A stretch of DNA of 64,000 bases from a virus: positions 1-64,000 of the IMG/VR virus record IMGVR_UViG_3300034152_000419; one strand, given 5' to 3'. The position numbers were made by a program, and so were the translations under genes. The notes under the pieces were generated by a model, which saw only the letters and a program-made list of their open reading frames with translations, did no database searches and was not told where the DNA came from. Positions 3,379-33,128 of this stretch are shown piece by piece (positions within the stretch are counted from its first letter, which is position 1; each line of letters starts with the position of its first letter).

Positions 3379-3721
3379 CTCCGTTGCCTTTTTTCGGTTT
3401 TTGTCTCTCTGCCGCGAGATGAGCCGGGAGGATCAGTCCAGTGCTCGCCTTTTGCACGAGTCCCTTATTTGCCTCGATCTCTTTGAGCAGTGTTTGACGA
3501 CCGACCCTCATCCCGACATGGAAAGACTCATGAATGAGGTTGTTTATCTGATTGATGATATCCTCTTTGACTTTGTCGGGAGTCTCAGAGATCCTCAATG
3601 TGTTCAAGTTCGCCACGACCGGAGCGAGTTTTTCAGGAGGGACCGTGATTTTCGCCGAGACCCGAACCTGTTTTAGTTGCTCCGCCTCTTTTCGTTCAAG
3701 TTTTGCTCTCTTTCCGCTCAT
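3362..3721 (-). CDS. Hypothetical protein, 119 aa
   Basis: A highly charged, largely helical protein. The N-terminus is a Lys/Glu-rich helix (KRAKLERKEAEQLKQ), the middle is KVKEDIINQINNLIHESFHVGMRVGRQTL, and the C-terminus is a flexible Lys/Gly/Asp tail. It is coupled by an ATGA junction to the upstream zinc-finger gene. No domain recognised. Confidence 0.65.
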   Translation of the reverse strand: MSGKRAKLERKEAEQLKQVRVSAKITVPPEKLAPVVANLNTLRISETPDKVKEDIINQINNLIHESFHVGMRVGRQTLLKEIEANKGLVQKASTGLILPAHLAAERQKPKKGNGDDSKG

Positions 3722-4524
3722 TTTTTCCTCCTGATATCTGTCCGAATCTGTCTGAGACCCCGTCTTTTCAGCATTTTACAGACGACCGTGTGATCACTGA
3801 AACAGTTTTTGATCTCCGTGATAAAAAGATCGACGACGTGAGATGTTTTCATCGTTCGGAGCATATCATCAATTTCGGATTCCGGTTTTGTGCACACGTG
3901 TGCACCACAGAGAGAGCATTTTGCGACAAACATCTCCTCATCGGATAAAAATCGAACCTGACAGTCTGCCGGGAAATCAAAAATATTGATCGGGAGATCC
4001 CGACCTCGCATTTTTTCGGGTTTTCTGTCAGACCAGTATTTTTGAGGATGCACCTCTCCCATTTTGTGAATCTCAATCGGCACGACTCCCGGAAAACACT
4101 CCTCGTCCGCATGATATCCGATAGCATTGAGGACCTCCTCCCTGATCCTCTCCCTGTTCTTGTTGACCTTGTCCTCATAACTGATTGTGTGAATGATCTC
4201 CCCGCACCGATCACACAACAAAAGAGTCGATCTGCGACGGAGGTCCTCCTCGACGTTGATCCATGCCGGAAATCCTTTTGAGTAATAAGTTCGATTATAG
4301 TCCCGCACCGTGACCCCCATGATCGCGTCATCCGTGTTCTGTGCAATCTGCTCCGCGAGCATTTCGACGACCTCGTTGTAATGATCGGGATGACGTGCGT
4401 TTTCGAGCATGTCCCTGACTCTTTGCTCGATTCCAGAGTCAAGAATGTCCCTGCCGCCCCTCATGATATTATATTCAAGGTCTGAGGTATTGACCCCGAT
4501 TTTGATATCCCGGTCCTTTGCCAT
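3718..4524 (-). CDS. Zinc-binding protein of unknown function
   Basis: A 268-residue protein with two cysteine pairs, CDRCGE near residue 103 and CSLCGAHVC near residue 206, that could bind zinc across the fold. The second knuckle is encoded by one of the nine dispersed 16-bp dyads (3890-3905), which supplies AHVC. The remainder is acidic and helical. It follows two small genes downstream of the terminase. Function unknown. Confidence 0.7.
   Translation of the reverse strand: MAKDRDIKIGVNTSDLEYNIMRGGRDILDSGIEQRVRDMLENARHPDHYNEVVEMLAEQIAQNTDDAIMGVTVRDYNRTYYSKGFPAWINVEEDLRRRSTLLLCDRCGEIIHTISYEDKVNKNRERIREEVLNAIGYHADEECFPGVVPIEIHKMGEVHPQKYWSDRKPEKMRGRDLPINIFDFPADCQVRFLSDEEMFVAKCSLCGAHVCTKPESEIDDMLRTMKTSHVVDLFITEIKNCFSDHTVVCKMLKRRGLRQIRTDIRRKK
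3890..3905. repeat. Dispersed 16-bp dyad, copy 1 (exact)
   Basis: GTGCACACGTGTGCAC, a perfect palindrome inside the zinc-binding gene 3718-4524, where it is read as AHVCT and provides a cysteine of the second knuckle. Confidence 0.9.
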
Positions 4525-11925: not shown

Positions 11926-11941
11926 GTGCACACGTGTGCAC
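11926..11941. repeat. Dispersed 16-bp dyad, copy 2 (exact)
   Basis: GTGCACACGTGTGCAC, a perfect palindrome. It is intergenic, eight bases upstream of the -35 box of the AAA+ gene promoter. Confidence 0.9.
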
Positions 11942-21628: not shown

Positions 21629-22236
21629 GTCCTTGTCCTCCTGTTTTTGTCAATACGAATCACCCTGACTTTCCTTTTTCTCGCCGCATTGTCAGGGATC
21701 ACGTGTGCGAGTTCCGCCTCAAGTTGATCGATTGCCTCGGACAGATCCGGTCCCTCGTCGTCATCAAAATCAAGCACCTCCGAGAGAGGACGTCCCTGAC
21801 CGAGATCCTCTGATCGACAGTTCGGATGAAAGGGAGGATCGCCTCGCCGCAGTCCCCTCGTCCGATTGAGAGCCTCGCGACTCATAACGTCTCGAACATT
21901 GTCGTCATCCGCGATGACGATGAGATCAAATGAGTCCCTCAAAACGTCCTGAGTCCCGTCTCCGAAATCTATTTCAGCACTGACATTGACGGTATAAGGA
22001 CTCATCGAAATATGTCCCTCCCGGATCTGCATCTCGACCCGGAGAGGTTTGTTTTCAGGGACAATGCTATCTCTCAGCATGAATGTCGTCGTGTCATTGT
22101 TTATCAGATTCACGATTCTGATTTCGTGATCGATAATTTTTGCCTCTCCGATCAGACCCGGAATCAAGGCATTGTCAAAATCAACCCGGAGAGTGATTGT
22201 CTCCCTGATCTTTTTGAAAGTAGTTCCGAGACTCAT
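21625..22236 (-). CDS. Hypothetical protein, 203 aa
   Basis: The N-terminal part is strand-rich (ITLRVDFDNALIPGLIGEAKIIDHEIRI). The centre has a DGTQDVLRDSFDLIVIADDDN stretch and a segment NRTRGLRRGDPPFHPNC, followed by an acidic helix (EAIDQLEAELAHVI) and basic tail. Not recognised. ATGA-type overlaps with both neighbours tie it to the DnaB/primase genes. Confidence 0.6.
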   Translation of the reverse strand: MSLGTTFKKIRETITLRVDFDNALIPGLIGEAKIIDHEIRIVNLINNDTTTFMLRDSIVPENKPLRVEMQIREGHISMSPYTVNVSAEIDFGDGTQDVLRDSFDLIVIADDDNVRDVMSREALNRTRGLRRGDPPFHPNCRSEDLGQGRPLSEVLDFDDDEGPDLSEAIDQLEAELAHVIPDNAARKRKVRVIRIDKNRRTRT

Positions 22237-23492
22237 TTTCGACGTTTTCCCTTGTCCTCTTTTTTCACGAAAACTGTGTTCTCCGCCACGACTGCAAATT
22301 GTGTGATCGTCATTTTGTTAAAATCGAACTCGACCTCAATGACTCCCTGCTCTCCCTCACGTCCCTTGAGGATCGACAGATAACTATAAACGACGCCTTT
22401 TGCTCCCTCCCGTGTCGAGGGATTCAATCCACAGACAATCGAGGCGAGTTTTCCGATCTCATCCGATCCGCCGATGTGATCGATTGAGCCGGACCCTTTT
22501 CGACTGAACTGATATGTCGCGATGATCGGGATCGAGAACTCGGTCCCCATCATTTTCTGATATTCCGCGACCTCCGCGATTCGTTCCCATCGTGACCTGA
22601 ACCTGTCCCGTGTCCTGAGCATATATGCACCGTCAATGTAAACACACGTCGGACGTTTCTCCTGAATCACGAGAGCGAGATCCTCAATGGTTGACTTGAG
22701 AGATCCCTGCATCACATAAAACGGATTCTCAAGTTTTTCCAGATCGGAGAGAATATTGACGACCTTTTTGACCTTAAAATGATCCGTCTGTCCGAGTCGG
22801 AGGTGTCGAACATTCACTCCTGTGTCCAGTGCGATGATCCGCCTTGCACACTGTAAAGCAGACATCTCGAAATTGACGACAAGAGGTGTCTCTCCATAAC
22901 TGTGAGCATATAGAGCAGAGGCGAACAGGAGATATGATTTCCCGGTTCCCGGACGTCCGACGATTGCGACCGTGTCGGATGCTTGAGCACCATCGGAGAG
23001 ATCGTCCAGATACTCAAAACCGAACGGGACCCCGCTCATCCGGGAGGACATCTGCCGGAGTCTCTGTGCCTTTAGGACATCACGTCCGGCATCCGAGAGA
23101 GTCCTCACACTGTCCGCCGCGAACTTTTCCCTGAGTTTCAGAGCAAGTCCTGAGATCTCCTCCCTTGCCTCGTCAACAAAACCGTCGCCGATTTTCATCT
23201 GAATGGATTTCATCGTGTCGATCATCATTTTTTCTTGATGACGATTCCTGACTCCGTCCATCCAATATCCGAGAGGTTCGTCGGGAAATGATCCGATCTT
23301 GACCTCGACCTCCCGCTCGACCGTCTCGATGCTCGGCATTTTGCCGAATTTTATGAAATGATGACGAACATATCTGAGGACCGCGACCTCCTCCCCCTCG
23401 AACGATTCGTCGTCGATTGAGTGTTCTATTAAAAAAGACGGAGATCGCCTCTCCTCGATCATTCGCCTGAGCAGACCCATCCCGACGGACAT
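22233..23492 (-). CDS. Replicative DnaB-like helicase
   Basis: A 419-residue hexameric helicase. The N-terminal domain (about 1-125) is helical; the RecA-like C-terminal domain starts GVPFGFEYLDDLSDGAQ, with Walker A GRPGTGKSY (about 179-187), VNFEMSALQCARR, Walker B TCVYIDGAYML, and ATYQFSRKG with an Arg-finger region. It unwinds the fork together with the adjacent primase. The ATG at 23492 follows GGGAGGGATTG; an upstream TTG is less likely. Confidence 0.88.
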   Translation of the reverse strand: MSVGMGLLRRMIEERRSPSFLIEHSIDDESFEGEEVAVLRYVRHHFIKFGKMPSIETVEREVEVKIGSFPDEPLGYWMDGVRNRHQEKMMIDTMKSIQMKIGDGFVDEAREEISGLALKLREKFAADSVRTLSDAGRDVLKAQRLRQMSSRMSGVPFGFEYLDDLSDGAQASDTVAIVGRPGTGKSYLLFASALYAHSYGETPLVVNFEMSALQCARRIIALDTGVNVRHLRLGQTDHFKVKKVVNILSDLEKLENPFYVMQGSLKSTIEDLALVIQEKRPTCVYIDGAYMLRTRDRFRSRWERIAEVAEYQKMMGTEFSIPIIATYQFSRKGSGSIDHIGGSDEIGKLASIVCGLNPSTREGAKGVVYSYLSILKGREGEQGVIEVEFDFNKMTITQFAVVAENTVFVKKEDKGKRRK

Positions 23493-23521: not shown

Positions 23522-24160
23522 TCAAAAAAGTTCAATGTCGCTTTGTCCCCGTCCCTGTCGAGTTTGAAAAACGTCACACTGAGTTTTTATCAGACGTGCA
23601 ATATTTTTGCCGACGGCATTTCCGATCTCATCCCATATCCGGGGGAGTGCCTCTTTGTCAGCATTGACATCGGAGTCGAAATGGACCAGAAAAACAGTCG
23701 GAGCACCACTCGCCGCCCGATCTGATAAATTGTTAAATATCCTTGATTCATAGTTGAAAAATTTTCGGTATTTCGTTGTCGGATAGATCCACAGGAGCAA
23801 CTCATTTCGAGTGATATCGTTTGAGAATCGTGTGACGTCGTCCTCAAAATCCCCCCGCTCAAACGGATCGACAAAATCATGAGTCGTCAGAGAGTTCGCA
23901 AATTTCAGATATGAGATGATATAGGTGATCGGGATCAACTCATAAAAAGTCTCAAGCGTTTTTATATCATCCGAGACGATCATGATCCACGGATGGGATT
24001 CGATCTTGAGAAAAAATTTCGCGAGACTCTTGAGGATTTTCTTTTCGACCTTTTCCTCCCGCCACCCGTCGAGATTAAACCCGCACCTCTCACAGAGATG
24101 ACTCGCCTTTTCAAAACGGTCCGACGGTTTTTTGATCGTCCACGGATAAAAAATTTTCAT
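23522..24160 (-). CDS. Possible helicase-loader-position protein, 212 aa
   Basis: A 212-residue protein between the initiator and the DnaB-like helicase, the place of P/DnaC loaders in lambda-like phages. It has a CERCG knuckle near the N-terminus, WIMIVSDDIKTLETFYELI, LLLWIYPTTKYRKF and APTVFLVHFD strands that could be an alpha/beta ATPase-like fold, but no Walker A is visible. The loader idea is therefore positional only. I start at the ATG at 24160; a TTG six bases upstream is an alternative. Confidence 0.5.
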   Translation of the reverse strand: MKIFYPWTIKKPSDRFEKASHLCERCGFNLDGWREEKVEKKILKSLAKFFLKIESHPWIMIVSDDIKTLETFYELIPITYIISYLKFANSLTTHDFVDPFERGDFEDDVTRFSNDITRNELLLWIYPTTKYRKFFNYESRIFNNLSDRAASGAPTVFLVHFDSDVNADKEALPRIWDEIGNAVGKNIARLIKTQCDVFQTRQGRGQSDIELF

Positions 24161-24172
24161 GATCAATCATCC

Positions 24173-25030
24173 TCATCGGTTGTCGATTATTCGATATCTG
24201 CTCGACACATAGTCCGTTCGTCTTTTTGCCTCGGATAGTGCCTCAAGGATTCTCTTTCGGTGACTGTAAACAAATGAGAACGTGAACCGGGAGGGGACGA
24301 AAAGCGGTCTTTTGAAATCATCGACCAGTGACGACCGGAGGACGTTCCATGACGAAACCAGATCACGGAAAACCTCCCTCGGATCTCGTCCCATTTCCTC
24401 ACAGTCCTGTTTCATGAACATTTTTGCCTGTCTCTCAAGTTTTTTCGTCCATGCCTCCCCGGAATATTCAACATCATACTCAGCACACAGATCCCGAAAA
24501 TAAGAGGTGAGCGTTTGCACTCTCAACTCTTTCCGCTTTTTATTTTTAAAATCCTTTGACTCCTCAAAACCATCCCGGACACCTTTAATATAATTTTTCA
24601 AGAGCGTCACCCCTTTTCGAGTGAATTTCGGTTTGATCAGTTTACCGAACTCCCGTGACGTCCGCTCAAGGATCTCGACGATTCTGTCAGGGATGCACGA
24701 GATGTCCTGATACAACTTTTTAATTGCATACCAGATCGCCGGGAGATTTATCGTTATATCACAGCGACCGTCAACCCTGTCCCTGAAAAAAATCAGTCCT
24801 TGATCCCTGAGTCTCTTTTTTGCCTTGTGAATATTTTGTCGATTAAACGGGAGACCGAGTGTGATTCCCGGAATCCCCCTTTCAAATTGTTTCGCCGGAA
24901 TCCTCTCCGTGAGTTTGTCGAACCGGAGTGTCCTCTCGCAGACGAACCGGAGAACAAAATAATCAGATCCAGTCCCGAATAAATGCAAATGACTTGAGAT
25001 CAACCCGTTATAAGCGAATGACAGACTCAT
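24173..25030 (-). CDS. Lambda O-like replication initiator
   Basis: A 285-residue protein. The N-terminal region (about residues 18-75) reads YFVLRFVCERTLRFDKL..ERIPAKQFERG....LPFNRQNIHKAKKRLRDQGLI, the order found in phage replication protein O winged helices (ERTxGxxK, Ser/Ile helix, recognition helix, xxLxxxGLI). The rest is basic and helical. It lies immediately beside four dyad iterons and an AT-rich block, matching an initiator with its own origin. The ATG at 25030 has GGGGGGAGGG upstream. Confidence 0.65.
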   Translation of the reverse strand: MSLSFAYNGLISSHLHLFGTGSDYFVLRFVCERTLRFDKLTERIPAKQFERGIPGITLGLPFNRQNIHKAKKRLRDQGLIFFRDRVDGRCDITINLPAIWYAIKKLYQDISCIPDRIVEILERTSREFGKLIKPKFTRKGVTLLKNYIKGVRDGFEESKDFKNKKRKELRVQTLTSYFRDLCAEYDVEYSGEAWTKKLERQAKMFMKQDCEEMGRDPREVFRDLVSSWNVLRSSLVDDFKRPLFVPSRFTFSFVYSHRKRILEALSEAKRRTDYVSSRYRIIDNR

Positions 25031-25100
25031 GATTTCCCTCCCCCCGTTTTCAGTCAAAAAATCCCCCGGTCTGCTTATGCGGACTTTGTCCGCCTTTGCT

Positions 25101-25140
25101 ATCTCAACTTATAATCTCATATAATAATCTATATATATAG
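25101..25140. other. AT-rich block, candidate DNA unwinding element
   Basis: A 40-base block with only seven G/C bases, between the initiator gene and the iterons. An adjacent AT-rich unwinding segment is a hallmark of iteron origins, including lambda. Confidence 0.55.
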
Positions 25141-25142
25141 GT

Positions 25143-25228
25143 GACTCGCCAGCGAGACACAGCGTCTCGCCAGTGAGACACAGCGTATCGCCAGCGAGAC
25201 ACCCTGTCTCGCCAGCGAGACACCCCTG
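25143..25228. repeat. Four 21-bp dyad iterons (probable replication origin)
   Basis: Four direct repeats with an exact 21-bp period (units at 25145, 25166, 25187, 25208). Each contains the dyad GTCTCGC-CA-GCGAGAC; unit 4 is perfect and units 1-3 have one change each. The period is two helical turns, putting all sites on one face of DNA. With an O-like initiator 115 bases away and the AT-rich block alongside, this matches a lambda-type origin (four inverted-repeat iterons plus AT-rich DNA). Nothing here suggests CRISPR. Confidence 0.7.
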
Positions 25229-25246
25229 ATCCCCCCTTTTTTCAAG

Positions 25247-25275
25247 TTGACAAGGATTTCATCCCCTGATATATT
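25247..25275 (+). promoter_or_regulatory. Plus-strand sigma-70 promoter for small RNA
   Basis: TTGACA (25247-25252), a 17-base spacer ending TGA, and TATATT (25270-25275): consensus -35, five of six at -10, and an extended TGn. It is the only strong promoter I see on the strand opposite to all protein genes. Confidence 0.75.
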
Positions 25276-25281
25276 CCCCAT

Positions 25282-25403
25282 AATTGAGCATCGGTTCGAT
25301 GCTTGATTCCCGCAGTGACCGTCCTTGTCCTTTGCCACCATGACTCATGTCACTGCAACCCCGGACCCGGAGGGAAATCGCCGCCCCTCCGGGTTTTCTT
25401 TTT
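25282..25403 (+). ncRNA. Candidate ~120-nt structured small RNA at the origin
   Basis: Predicted from a strong promoter (25247-25275) to a rho-independent terminator ending at 25403. Three hairpins are visible: AGCATCG/CGATGCT with a three-base loop (25287-25303), GCAGTGAC/GTCACTGC closing a 29-base loop (25312-25356), and the terminator stem. No convincing ORF lies inside. It runs antisense to any transcript entering the initiator gene from upstream, so it may act as a copy-control or counter-transcribed RNA, comparable in position and size class to lambda OOP or plasmid RNAI; function is inference. Confidence 0.65.
25365..25403 (+). terminator. Rho-independent terminator of the small RNA
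   Basis: ACCCGGAGGG (25365-25374), a ten-base loop, CCCTCCGGGT (25385-25394) and then TTTTCTTTTT: a perfect 10-bp stem with a T-tract on the plus strand only. It ends at the stop codon of the convergent gene 25402-25650. Confidence 0.85.
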
Positions 25404-25650
25404 AATATTTCGAGAGACGACTCAGAGACGGTTTCTTTTTCGGTTTTCTAAAATGCCGGACCCCCTCCTGATATATCCATTGAATGACTGATTCCAGATC
25501 TGAGAGATCCCGTCTGTCCCACTCTTGAGCGTTGCCCGAAAACAGATCCCCCTCACCCTGCTCGAAATGAACCTCAAGAAATGGGACGACCGTTTCAATG
25601 AGAATCCGTGCTCTGTTTTTTGTCAGATTTATTCTCGTTGATTTTTGCAT
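25402..25650 (-). CDS. Hypothetical protein, 82 aa
   Basis: An 82-residue protein with a basic N-terminus (KSTRINLTKNRARILIETVVPFLEVHF), a central helix (LSDLESVIQWIYQEGVRHF) and a Lys/Ser-rich tail. Not recognised. It converges with the plus-strand small RNA, whose terminator touches its stop codon. It lies downstream of a minus-strand terminator and therefore may depend on readthrough. Confidence 0.6.
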   Translation of the reverse strand: MQKSTRINLTKNRARILIETVVPFLEVHFEQGEGDLFSGNAQEWDRRDLSDLESVIQWIYQEGVRHFRKPKKKPSLSRLSKY

Positions 25651-25751: not shown

Positions 25752-26039
25752 CTAATTTTTGAAAAATGATTCGACAGGGATTCCCTGAAACAGGACCCCG
25801 TTGAGAACTTTGATCTCATGTGCAATCGCCTCGGATCTTTTTGCGAATGTGTCGGAGAGTCTTTTCCTCGAACCGTCGAGCATGTTCACCTCGACGAACC
25901 ATTTTTGTTCATCCTCGTCGAACAGCACATTCGATGCACGAATGACACTGACCCGTCCCTCGGTGACAATCGGGGAGTCCTCATCATACAAGCAAAACAC
26001 CTCCCCGTGTGCCGTGATCTTGAACGTCGTTGCTTTCAT
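25752..26039 (-). CDS. Hypothetical protein, 95 aa
   Basis: Starts at the ATG at 26039 after GGAGGACAGGG. It is strand-rich (TTFKITAHGEVFCLYDED, then RVSVIRASNVLF and KWFVEVNMLDGSRKRL) with a final helix. Unrecognised. An exact 16-bp dyad lies 27 bases upstream of the ATG. It is the last gene before a strong terminator. Confidence 0.65.
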   Translation of the reverse strand: MKATTFKITAHGEVFCLYDEDSPIVTEGRVSVIRASNVLFDEDEQKWFVEVNMLDGSRKRLSDTFAKRSEAIAHEIKVLNGVLFQGIPVESFFKN

Positions 26040-26099: not shown

Positions 26100-26294
26100 T
26101 TATTGACCGACGTGAACTCCGCCGGACCCCTCCTGATAAAATTCAGGTTTTCGTTTCTTGTCCCGGACCTCGCCGAGTGCGTTCATCGCCTTTTTCGCGA
26201 GATCCTCACACTTTCCGCCTGTGAAACCCTCAGCGTCGAACTTGACGTCCGAACCATCCGGGGAGATCGTGATTGTCAAAGTACCGTCAGACAT
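26100..26294 (-). CDS. DUF2997-like protein
   Basis: A 64-residue protein beginning GTLTITISPDGSDVKFDAEGFTGGKC, the strand pattern of DUF2997 (xIxxxISPDG...GFxGxxC), followed by a helix (EDLAKKAMNALGEV). Function is unknown. It lies next to a DUF1257-like gene, as I recall for cyanobacterial and other bacterial clusters that also carry a Ycf46-like ATPase. Confidence 0.65.
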   Translation of the reverse strand: MSDGTLTITISPDGSDVKFDAEGFTGGKCEDLAKKAMNALGEVRDKKRKPEFYQEGSGGVHVGQ

Positions 26295-26312
26295 TTACTC
26301 ACCTCCTCCCAT

Positions 26313-26696
26313 TTACATTGACGCCGCACGGAGGACGATTGAGCCGTCGTTCTGCTCGACGGTCTCCGTGACCATTCCCCCGCTCTGCGTGATCCCGTTT
26401 CGGACGACTCCGACCGCATAATCACGCATGAGTTTTCCACCATTCGCACCGAGACGCCGAGTGATCGACGAATAGTGAGCGTCGGTGTCCAGTGCGAGAC
26501 GATATGCTCCACCCTCACGGACGAGATATCCCTGAGAGCCTCCCTGCGTGTCCCTGAGGATCGCATGAACCGGATATCCGTTCCACTGCATCCGCTCATC
26601 CCGGTTCAGATTATACTCGATCCCGTGTTGACGACACACATTTTTGAACATCGTGAGGTCCGAGATCTTGACCCCGACTTTCGCCCAAAATGACAT
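26313..26696 (-). CDS. DUF1257 (Ycf35)-like protein
   Basis: A 127-residue protein whose start (SFWAKVGVKISDLTMFKNVCRQHG) and body (GYPVHAILRD..GSQGYLVREGGAYRLALDTD) follow the DUF1257/Ycf35 pattern of a small alpha/beta protein with an early IxDL helix. Function unknown. The adjacent DUF2997-like gene and the distant Ycf46-like ATPase support the assignment by association. Confidence 0.6.
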   Translation of the reverse strand: MSFWAKVGVKISDLTMFKNVCRQHGIEYNLNRDERMQWNGYPVHAILRDTQGGSQGYLVREGGAYRLALDTDAHYSSITRRLGANGGKLMRDYAVGVVRNGITQSGGMVTETVEQNDGSIVLRAASM

Positions 26697-27304: not shown

Positions 27305-27333
27305 ACTTTATATCAGATCAAATTTTTTGTCAA
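27305..27333 (-). promoter_or_regulatory. Sigma-70-type promoter upstream of 26718-27284
   Basis: Minus-strand TTGACA (27328-27333), a 17-base spacer starting AAAAATTTGATC, and TAAAGT (27305-27310). The TTGACAAAAAATTT start is shared with the promoter at 27895. It would drive the DUF1257/DUF2997 operon down to the terminator at 25673. Confidence 0.65.
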
Positions 27334-30140: not shown

Positions 30141-33128
30141 TTAAAACATCATAAAATTCCATAACTCCTCCGCCGCTTTTCTGTTTCCCCATCCAGAATA
30201 ACCCCGGAAAAGATTGTGCATCCGACTTTGTTGAATTGCTCTGACAAGCAGATCCCGACGTCGTTCCATCGAAGTGACCTCCTCTGTCGAGAGACCATAT
30301 TTCCGACCGAGTTGCTCGACATCGAGTGCGTCGAGTCGTTTCATCAAAACCTCTCGTTTATGGATCGAGAGGATCGAATTAAAACCGGGGACCGTTGTGC
30401 TCGGTTGCATCGCCGCTCCGCACCGAAACTCTCGCATACCGAGCAGATCGTCGATCCCCTCCTGCGGAAAAGCATATCCGTTGTCGATGAGAATCATTTT
30501 GCCTTTGCCGCGACCCTCGACGACTCTCATCCAGTTTTTCCCGTGACGGTCCGTGTTGCCGATCAGGAAATCAAAAATCGTTGAATTATAGACATCCTCG
30601 TCTTTCAGATCGCGGAGAGGACTCGTCCGAAATTTTCTCGCGAACTCCGCCTCGGTGATTGCGTCCCCCCTGAAATATTGCAGAGATCCGGTTTTCCCAT
30701 TGATCTTGACGAGCCGTGTCTCCGGGACGAGATTCAATCCGAGATATCTGTCGATCTCCCATGCGAGAGCCTCCCTGTGTGCAAGGGGAGCATCCACATT
30801 CGTGATCGTTTTCCTGATATCGAACCTCTCTCCCTCAATCGGTTTAAACACTCCCTTTTGTCCATTCGGGAGAGTGACAATCTGTGTCTCGTTGACACCT
30901 CCGCCGAGACCGACGATTTTTTCCTTTTCTATTTTTCCGAGATCGATGACGAGTTCGCCGCGATTCGCAGTGAGTTGCTTTTTTGTCAGGAAAACTGATT
31001 TCCCATCATAGGGATCATTGAGTGAGACATACCAGTTTTTTCGTTCATATTTTAACCATTTGAGTTCATCGGAGACTCTCCTCCACACCTCATGATAATG
31101 GAGACGATTCGCCTCCGTGACCGTCATCTCACCTTTTTTCAATAACGCCTTGAACTCTGTCTCGACGTCGTCATAATGTTTTTTAAAAGATTTTTGCCAC
31201 GCATCATTGAGACGTTTTTTGCGAATGTCAGGATCATATTTGTTCAGAGTCTTGACAAATTTATCATCATAATCGACCCACATTTGATGACGGTATTGAC
31301 GACCGACCGCTCGAATCGTTCTCAATTCGTGAGTGACAAGAAACTTGACGTCCGCCGGAGAGAACGCATTGTTCGAGGGATGATTGTGCGTCAAGTGTTT
31401 CCCTGCAAATGTCTCATATTCTGAGCGAGTCCATTCGACACTGTGCTTTTTCCCACGTTTCTTGAGTAGGATCTCTCCTGCGTCATCATATACGACCCCA
31501 TATTCAAAATTGTGATCCGCGATTTCCTTTTCAATCTGCAAAAGTTTTTGTTCAAATTTTGAGACCGGAGCATGTGTCGTCGGTTGAATTTTCTCCGCCG
31601 GAGTGACTTTCGCCGGAGGTTTGACCCGACGTCTTTTTCCCGCGAGGATCTTGTCCAGTGCGGACCCGTCCGCCTGATATCCGAGTCTTGTCTCTTTGAA
31701 CCAGTGCCGCTCTAAAAATTTCACCTCTCGCAGTGACGCCGGGGATGCAACCCGCACATATCCGCCTTTGTCCTTTGCGAACTGTGCGAAATTCTCGATC
31801 ACCGTTGTGTCTTGTGCTCTGCCGAAATTATAGAATTTATTGACCGTGACCCCGGACTTGTGCTTGTTATACTGAGCGACACAGATATTGTCACCATGAC
31901 GGGAGACCGCGACGTTTGCTTTTTTGTCCCCCATCAATCTCCATGCCGCCTGACGGGTTTTGTCCCTGTGAGTGTCCCATCCCTGCATGTGTCGATCCCT
32001 GAACAAGAGTCTCTGTTCGGGGACCATCGGGATTTCATTGAACGACTCGAACGTGACATTCCCATCGAAACGAGTATGCAGGAGAACGACCTCACACCGA
32101 CATCGGGGATGGAATGGGGGGACGAGATCCAGATCACGGATCGCCTCCGGGGGGACGTTGTCGACATCGTCCATTCGGGGAAATTGCCACAGATCCCGGA
32201 TCGCCTGAACATTTCCCGCAGTGATCCCGTCATATTCCTGCATTTTGTTGATTGCCATTTCCGCAGAAAAACACCGACCATCGATCCGTTGACACACGGG
32301 ACAGGTTTTGCGGTCCCTCTCACTGATCACTTGATACTCTGAGACTGCATATCCCTGCATCATCGCGACCGCAGTTTTATTCCATGCACGAGCGACCTCG
32401 ACGTCGCCTGTGATGTCAAATTGTGCATGAGGGATCGAGGGGATATTATTGACCCGATTGATGAGTTCCGCACGATCAACCGCACGGACACCCTCTTTGA
32501 GTGTTGCCTGAGTTGCAAGTTCCGCGATTCGGGGATTGAGAACCTCGGATGGAAATCCGTTTATATAGTCCTGAATAAGGATCGGTTGTTGCAGAGAAAA
32601 CCACTGATCGAACTGTTCGCGGGAGACCTTTTCGACCTTGCCGACATCCGCTTGAATCTGATTCACCGTCGGTTCGTGACCACGTTCCGTTGTTGCCTCA
32701 ATGAACTCGCCGAACCGCTTGTCATAAAAAACTTGAGACCGATATTGCGTCTCAAGATAGATCTCCTCGACTTTGTCCTTGACGAGTTTCCAGTGACGAG
32801 CACCGAGAGACTCCGCGCCTTTGAGGATCTTATTCAACCGCTTGTTGTCAACCGTGACAGGATCAGCCTCAAGATCGAACGCATCGACGACCTCGTCCGT
32901 GTAATCCTCCCCTCCCGCCTCTTTCCATCCGTTGACGAGGACCCGAAACATGAGAGCCGCCTGAGGTCCCCACAGGATCAGATCTCCTGACGCCTTGAGG
33001 ACCTCCGCGATTGTTTCAAGGGGATTGATGAGTTTGAGGTTTCCTGTGTGAATCAAGAACGCCTGATCAAATGAGTCAAGATTCAGGACCTCAACCGGAT
33101 TCGGTTTTCTCCTCGACAGGTGACTCAT
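30141..33128 (-). CDS. MuF head-morphogenesis protein fused to JAMM-like and PI3K/HipA-like kinase domains
   Basis: A 995-residue virion protein. Residues ~1-350 form an SPP1-gp7/MuF module ending in a zinc cluster (CPVC at 276-279, HPRCRC at 340-345). Residues ~390-480 are an unassigned alpha/beta region. Residues ~540-610 carry HLTHNHPSNNAFSPAD (H581, H583, S590, D593), a JAMM/MPN-like metal-site pattern. Residues ~740-990 resemble a PI3/4K- or HipA-type kinase: GVFKPIEG (K762), HREALAWEI (E787), IGNTDRHGKN (D860, N865) and ILIDNG (D882). MuF proteins sit inside the capsid and can carry C-terminal effector domains, so an injected kinase is a reasonable inference. It directly follows the portal gene. 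Confidence 0.8.
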   Translation of the reverse strand: MSHLSRRKPNPVEVLNLDSFDQAFLIHTGNLKLINPLETIAEVLKASGDLILWGPQAALMFRVLVNGWKEAGGEDYTDEVVDAFDLEADPVTVDNKRLNKILKGAESLGARHWKLVKDKVEEIYLETQYRSQVFYDKRFGEFIEATTERGHEPTVNQIQADVGKVEKVSREQFDQWFSLQQPILIQDYINGFPSEVLNPRIAELATQATLKEGVRAVDRAELINRVNNIPSIPHAQFDITGDVEVARAWNKTAVAMMQGYAVSEYQVISERDRKTCPVCQRIDGRCFSAEMAINKMQEYDGITAGNVQAIRDLWQFPRMDDVDNVPPEAIRDLDLVPPFHPRCRCEVVLLHTRFDGNVTFESFNEIPMVPEQRLLFRDRHMQGWDTHRDKTRQAAWRLMGDKKANVAVSRHGDNICVAQYNKHKSGVTVNKFYNFGRAQDTTVIENFAQFAKDKGGYVRVASPASLREVKFLERHWFKETRLGYQADGSALDKILAGKRRRVKPPAKVTPAEKIQPTTHAPVSKFEQKLLQIEKEIADHNFEYGVVYDDAGEILLKKRGKKHSVEWTRSEYETFAGKHLTHNHPSNNAFSPADVKFLVTHELRTIRAVGRQYRHQMWVDYDDKFVKTLNKYDPDIRKKRLNDAWQKSFKKHYDDVETEFKALLKKGEMTVTEANRLHYHEVWRRVSDELKWLKYERKNWYVSLNDPYDGKSVFLTKKQLTANRGELVIDLGKIEKEKIVGLGGGVNETQIVTLPNGQKGVFKPIEGERFDIRKTITNVDAPLAHREALAWEIDRYLGLNLVPETRLVKINGKTGSLQYFRGDAITEAEFARKFRTSPLRDLKDEDVYNSTIFDFLIGNTDRHGKNWMRVVEGRGKGKMILIDNGYAFPQEGIDDLLGMREFRCGAAMQPSTTVPGFNSILSIHKREVLMKRLDALDVEQLGRKYGLSTEEVTSMERRRDLLVRAIQQSRMHNLFRGYSGWGNRKAAEELWNFMMF

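What the first reader, a model, noticed from the sequence alone, without database searches (positions are those of the whole stretch)
25247..25403. A plus-strand small RNA gene at the origin, the only transcript opposing all genes
TTGACA-17-TATATT and a perfect terminator define a ~120-nt RNA with three hairpins and no convincing ORF. It is divergent from the initiator gene, next to the iterons, and complementary to the leader of any transcript reaching that gene from upstream. This is the geometry of copy-control or counter-transcribed RNAs such as RNAI/CopA and of lambda OOP, but the sequence is not one I recognise.
Basis: partly seen in the sequence, partly recalled or inferred. Interest (0 to 1): 0.87.

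Follow-up and report, generated by a model that had tools for sequence, protein, structure and literature searches.

The report
Opposing small RNA at phage origin
A previously uncatalogued family of phages keeps, right beside its DNA replication origin, one short RNA gene that runs against all the other genes, and its placement suggests it throttles how often the phage starts copying its DNA, much as an unrelated small RNA does in phage lambda.

Summary
TTGACA-17-TATATT (25247-25275) and an intrinsic terminator (ending at 25403) define a structured RNA of about 120 nt. It lies between four 21-bp iterons and the upstream gene's stop codon. It is the only such promoter-terminator unit opposing the genes in this 64-kb window. 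It is also conserved: all 13 phages with a related helicase (at least about 37% identity) and enough upstream sequence, including the window and one found last as a hold-out, have the same layout. That layout is rep, AT-rich stretch, palindromic iterons, opposing promoter, 65-165-nt RNA, terminator, upstream stop codon. In 966 kb of helicase loci, 10 of 13 opposing units sit at this one spot; the gene strand has one unit. More distant forms occur in Aeromonas phage HJ05 and four Rhodobacter phages. Sequences have diverged completely; position, structure and 3' boundary have not. The nearest consensus promoter for rep usually lies about 2 kb upstream, so read-through mRNA would contain the RNA's complement. 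Best reading: a convergent analogue of lambda pO/OOP and B. subtilis ArrA that limits transcription into the origin and rep. It is not an OOP homologue, since it does not overlap the upstream coding sequence. No transcript data exist.

The parts
25247..25275 (+). sigma-70-type promoter of the RNA: TTGACA, 17 bp, TATATT, with TG before the -10
   Evidence: same hexamers and 17-bp spacing in nearly all relatives
25282..25403 (+). predicted small RNA, about 120 nt
   Evidence: fold z -4.9; positional conservation
25282..25308 (+). RNA hairpin 1
25312..25356 (+). RNA hairpin 2 with C/U-rich loop (CGUCCUUGUCCUUUGCCACC)
25363..25403 (+). intrinsic terminator, 12-pair stem and TTTTCTTTTT tail; its 3' end abuts the upstream gene's stop codon
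25146..25229 (.). four 21-bp iterons, each an imperfect palindrome (CTCGCCAGCGAGACAC)
   Evidence: different palindromic repeats at the same place in relatives, read by eye
25100..25141 (.). AT-rich stretch, likely unwinding element, between rep and the iterons
   Evidence: sequence; AT-rich stretch at the same place in relatives, read by eye
24173..25030 (-). rep: winged-helix protein, presumed replication initiator
   Evidence: AlphaFold/Foldseek, synteny
23522..24163 (-). conserved gene between rep and DnaB, possibly a helicase loader
   Evidence: synteny; function inferred from position only
22233..23489 (-). DnaB-like replicative helicase
   Evidence: PHROG 19, E 4e-50
25402..25650 (-). 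small upstream gene (82 aa) whose stop codon coincides with the RNA's 3' end
25752..26039 (-). conserved upstream gene, phrog_38408-like
27305..27333 (-). nearest consensus promoter for the operon that leads into rep (TTGACA-17-TAAAGT), convergent with the RNA promoter
   Evidence: equivalent promoter before the same first gene in five relatives

Best explanation
It is a cis-acting opposing transcription unit at the phage's iteron origin. A host-RNA-polymerase promoter fires away from the iterons, against the operon that reads into rep and the origin, and stops at the upstream gene's stop codon. It limits how much operon transcription reaches the iterons, the AT-rich stretch and rep. It does so by head-on interference and by the RNA pairing with the nascent intercistronic leader (RNase III cleavage or early termination). 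Because the promoter sits beside the iterons, initiator bound there may tune it, giving feedback on replication. Shown by computation: the promoter, terminator, RNA structure, position, boundary and convergence. Inferred: that the RNA is made, that it interferes, and the feedback.
For: Layout present in the window and all 11 relatives examined first and in hold-out L088. Position test: 10 of 13 opposing promoter-terminator units in 966 kb lie 1.75-2.05 kb upstream of the helicase start, with one unit on the gene strand. The 3' end lies -19 to +11 nt from the upstream stop codon in 15 of 15, so the unit fills the gap between that gene and the origin. In the window and five relatives, the nearest consensus operon promoter lies 1.8-2.3 kb upstream of rep; eight of the 12 have no promoter of 9/12 or better between the RNA promoter and rep, and most of the remaining matches are weak and AT-rich. 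RNA bodies are more stable than shuffles, mean z -2.8, combined about -9.8. In four Rhodobacter phages the -35 and -10 and the terminator stem are kept while the RNA's 5' part varies, as expected if transcription itself or cis pairing matters. Lambda pO, in the same geometry, lowers pR transcription and is needed for normal replication (PMC3985674). B. subtilis ArrA, antisense to the dnaA leader, lowers DnaA and is inhibited by DnaA (PMC12112137).
Against: No RNA-seq or Northern data. rep may have its own promoter in the AT-rich stretch (matches in L016, L018, L023 and L032; the L016 match is 11/12). C/U-rich loops and structured bodies hint at base-pairing beyond simple interference. Several related cultured phages (DLP_3, SM1, TM16, L338C, JP1, RcZahn) lack the unit, so it is not universal.
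Confidence: 0.55

Rival explanations
1. A trans-acting small RNA whose C/U-rich loops pair with the rep ribosome-binding site (or with several phage start sites) and block translation.
For: L017 RNA has 10 nt exact and E = -32.9 with rep (p = 0.001 against shuffles); L023 p = 0.006; L024 and L010 are suggestive; Fisher over 12 phages p = 8e-4. Anti-Shine-Dalgarno 4-mers 44 against 31 expected, p = 0.02. The window RNA has 8 nt (GACUCAUG) complementary to the rep start and 11 nt to the start of gene 3718-4524.
Against: Against other gene starts of the same phage, rep is not a preferred target (Fisher p = 0.37; in the window 19 of 75 starts score as well or better). Absent in L013, L018, L019 and L020. 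Start-region preference over internal sequence is weak.
Confidence: 0.2
2. A small RNA acting on host mRNAs (as lambda PreS does on dnaN), parked at the origin because its promoter responds to the replication region.
For: Own promoter, stable structure and U-rich tail suit a trans small RNA; the host is unknown, so targets could not be searched.
Against: RNA sequences are unrelated between phages, and the 3' end is tied to the neighbouring stop codon, which points to a local role.
Confidence: 0.1
3. The transcript primes DNA synthesis at the origin or activates it by opening DNA.
For: Promoter beside the iterons and a short terminated RNA; OOP was once proposed as a primer.
Against: The RNA starts on the far side of the iterons from the AT-rich stretch and runs away from it. 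The phage encodes its own primase. The primer role was judged unlikely for OOP because DnaG suffices (PMC3985674).
Confidence: 0.07
4. A leader peptide or tiny protein gene.
For: L010 has a leaderless 13-codon frame (MAVVILVLAAPPT).
Against: No conserved frame and no Shine-Dalgarno sequence; six of the 12 main RNAs have no frame of 8 codons or more.
Confidence: 0.02

Closest known systems
Phage lambda pO/OOP RNA (PMC3985674, PMC3349717)
   Same: Short terminated RNA from a promoter beside the iteron origin, divergent from the initiator gene and convergent with the early promoter that reads into it
   Different: No sequence or genome kinship; it does not overlap the upstream coding sequence, whereas OOP is antisense to cII; here the iterons lie outside rep
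Bacillus subtilis ArrA antisense RNA of dnaA (PMC12112137)
   Same: Antisense to the leader of an initiator operon, promoter near presumed initiator-binding sites
   Different: Chromosomal; our RNA lies further upstream, on the other side of the iterons; initiator control untested
Plasmid countertranscribed RNAs (CopA, RNAI, pMV158 RNAII)
   Same: Small structured RNA complementary to the rep leader
   Different: Those cover the rep ribosome-binding site, leader peptide or primer; here the RNA is 250-460 nt from the rep start
Phage small RNAs such as PreS and VpdS (review PMC12197685)
   Same: Phage-encoded small RNAs linked to replication
   Different: Trans-acting and not at the origin

Membership tests
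Lambda OOP | Own promoter and intrinsic terminator, divergent from the initiator, beside iterons | tested here: met
Lambda OOP | Convergent with the promoter that drives the initiator operon | tested here: met
   by consensus match only
Lambda OOP | Overlaps and is antisense to the upstream coding sequence (cII) | tested here: not met
   RNA 3' end -19 to +11 nt from the upstream stop codon in 15 of 15; about 28 nt short of it in L088
Lambda OOP | Common descent with lambdoid OOP | tested here: not met
   no Rfam match at gathering threshold, no related phage DNA; phage has its own primase and PolA
Lambda OOP | RNA made in vivo and promoter affects replication | not testable with these tools
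   needs infection experiments
Plasmid countertranscribed RNA | Perfectly complementary to the rep mRNA leader | tested here: inconclusive
   true if rep is transcribed from upstream, as promoter matches suggest
Plasmid countertranscribed RNA | Target covers the rep ribosome-binding site, leader peptide or pseudoknot | tested here: not met
   RNA start 251-461 nt from the rep start
Plasmid countertranscribed RNA | Loop-loop pairing controls copy number | not testable with these tools
   needs experiments
ArrA-type initiator antisense | Antisense promoter near initiator-binding sites | tested here: met
   last iteron ends 17 bp before the -35; that the iterons bind Rep is inferred
ArrA-type initiator antisense | Initiator represses the antisense promoter | not testable with these tools
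   needs in vitro transcription

The most novel reading that the evidence does not exclude
A separate, widespread class of origin-linked antisense RNA genes in non-lambdoid phages. Its sequence is free to change, but its position, structure and 3' boundary are fixed, and it couples initiator binding at the iterons to transcription reaching the origin. This would mean the dual-promoter origin is a convergent general solution and not a lambda peculiarity.
Probability: 0.45. Interest if true: 0.75.

Novelty: new variant of a known kind. Interest (0 to 1): 0.62.

Why it matters
Lambda's pO/OOP has been treated as a lambdoid oddity whose role in replication is still argued over. Finding the same layout, with no shared sequence, across a diverse set of uncultured phages and in culturable Rhodobacter and Aeromonas phages suggests that an opposing promoter at the origin is selected for repeatedly. 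It makes the long-open question of what pO does testable in independent systems, and adds a predicted RNA family that Rfam does not hold.

Tried and rejected
Single-protein scans with Rep and helicase found no relatives; alignments were needed. A general claim that the RNA targets the rep ribosome-binding site, first suggested by 8-10-nt matches seen by eye in four phages, failed against other gene starts as controls and was demoted. A general anti-Shine-Dalgarno role has only weak support. A covariance model was not built because the RNAs cannot be aligned across phages (MAFFT gave no shared columns of use). The leader-peptide idea was rejected. A genome-contig scan gave nothing, so no prophage or host link was found. 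Low-threshold Rfam hits were chance microRNA models on the iterons. Pfam and PHROG scans of 13 Rep proteins were uninformative.

Full report
What is there. On the plus strand, opposing all genes, a near-consensus sigma-70 promoter (TTGACA-17-TATATT, 25247-25275, TG-extended) is followed by about 120 nt of sequence and an intrinsic terminator ending at 25403. The RNA folds into three hairpins at -48.1 kcal/mol, z = -4.9. No Rfam family matches at gathering threshold and there is no credible ORF. To its left lie four 21-bp imperfectly palindromic iterons (25146-25229), then an AT-rich stretch, then rep (24173-25030), a small conserved gene and a DnaB-like helicase. To its right, the RNA's 3' end coincides with the stop codon of a small gene (25402-25650). 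The window is part of a 76.8-kb IMG/VR record; its host is unknown.

Relatives. DNA searches and single proteins found nothing close. PolA and RecA led to two distinct relatives. An alignment of three helicases then brought in more loci, and larger alignments more still. In every relative with a helicase at least about 37% identical and enough upstream DNA (L010, L011, L013, L016-L020, L023, L024, L032), the same place holds the same layout: rep, AT-rich stretch, repeats that are mostly palindromic, TTGAC[AT] with a -10 about 17 bp on, an RNA of 67-134 nt, a terminator, and the upstream stop codon. The iterons and AT-rich stretches of relatives were read by eye, and the repeats are least clear in L010 and L011. 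L088, found last and not used to define the layout, has it too, with a longer RNA of about 160 nt. RNA and iteron sequences differ completely between phages.

Is it more than chance? In 12 loci the strict promoter pattern occurs 27 times. Ten are these RNA promoters, nine of which have a terminator within 135 nt; 16 face the genes' way and one other opposes them, and none of those 17 has a terminator. In a scan of 966 kb around helicase genes with one fixed rule, 13 opposing promoter-terminator units were found and 10 fall between -1750 and -2050 bp of the helicase start; the gene strand has one unit. The RNA 3' end lies within -19 to +11 nt of the upstream stop codon in all 15 units measured. 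RNA bodies without the terminator are still more structured than shuffles, mean z = -2.8.

Cultured phages. Among isolated phages with a related helicase, Aeromonas phage HJ05 and Rhodobacter phages RcTiptonus, RcKickapoo, RcMenchie and RcDurkin have an opposing promoter, a short RNA and a terminator at the start of rep; DLP_3, SM1, TM16, L338C, JP1 and RcZahn do not. Among the four Rhodobacter phages the -35, the -10 and the terminator stem are kept, with one compensatory A-T to G-C pair in the stem. The terminator's apical loop is inverted in two of them (GGGACCGCTAATCCC against GGGATTAGCGGTCCC). The RNA's 5' part varies.

Regulatory context. The nearest consensus promoter reading toward rep lies 1.8-2.3 kb upstream in the window (-35 at 27333) and five relatives, before the same first gene. 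Between the RNA promoter and rep, eight of 12 phages have no promoter of 9/12 or better. So rep mRNA probably crosses the unit and its leader would be complementary to the RNA. In L010, L013, L016 and L017 a 14-16-bp palindrome (TTGCAANCGNTTGCAA, or its core in L017) lies 8-9 bp before the RNA's -35; the same motif precedes several protein-gene promoters, including the operon promoter of L010. The window's own RNA promoter lacks such a site.

Trans pairing. Exact matches to the rep start region are strong in L017 (10 nt, p = 0.001) and L023 (p = 0.006), suggestive in L024 and L010, and absent in others. Rep is not a better target than other gene starts overall, and preference for start regions is weak. 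In the window the match is 8 nt and not significant. I therefore treat trans action as a minority rival.

Mechanism. The best fit is an opposing transcription unit that limits operon transcription entering the origin and rep, by collision and/or by antisense pairing with the intercistronic leader, with possible feedback from initiator bound to the adjacent iterons. Lambda pO does the former: it lowers pR transcription, and its loss harms replication (PMC3985674). OOP antisense RNA promotes RNase III cleavage of cII mRNA (reviewed in PMC12197685). B. subtilis ArrA shows an antisense RNA in an initiator leader whose production is inhibited by the initiator (PMC12112137). All mechanistic steps here are inferred; only anatomy and conservation are shown.

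Membership. It works like OOP/pO but is not OOP: there is no kinship and it does not overlap the upstream coding sequence. It is not a classical plasmid countertranscribed RNA, because it does not cover the rep ribosome-binding site. The initiator role of Rep is itself inferred from synteny and a predicted winged helix. I found no description of this RNA in the papers searched, which do not cover subscription journals.

Noticed in passing
window 3890, 11926, 13442, 26066, 38334, 44976 (exact); 18036, 28873, 51979 (one mismatch): Dispersed 16-bp palindrome GTGCACACGTGTGCAC, 8 exact copies in the 76.8-kb record and none of the reversed control. At 11926 and 38334 it lies 0-8 bp before a TTGACA promoter facing the genes' way. 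Relatives carry TTGCAANCGNTTGCAA in the same role. Looks like the operator of an unidentified regulator, or a dispersed binding site.
   Followed up: partly
L060, L061, L062 and L056:2200-2480: The terminator loop of the opposing RNA is inverted between Rhodobacter phages (GGGACCGCTAATCCC against GGGATTAGCGGTCCC), keeping the hairpin.
   Followed up: partly
L010:9206-11461; L020:7992-9977: Intein-like (Hint) sequence interrupts DNA polymerase A in L010, and probably the primase in L020; judged by eye.
   Followed up: no
window 30141-33128: 995-aa head-morphogenesis (MuF-like) protein with a C-terminal region matching phrog_3162 that looks by eye like a HipA/kinase-type domain; possibly a capsid-carried effector.
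   Followed up: no
window 26100-26696: DUF2997- and DUF1257-like gene pair just upstream of the origin module in most relatives; function unknown and the family names are recalled, not searched.
   Followed up: no
window 3718-4524: The start of this gene (AUGGCAAAGGAC) is an 11-nt exact complement of the RNA's hairpin-2 loop (GUCCUUUGCCA), the longest match seen in the best-scoring gene starts apart from the RNA's own antisense.
   Followed up: no
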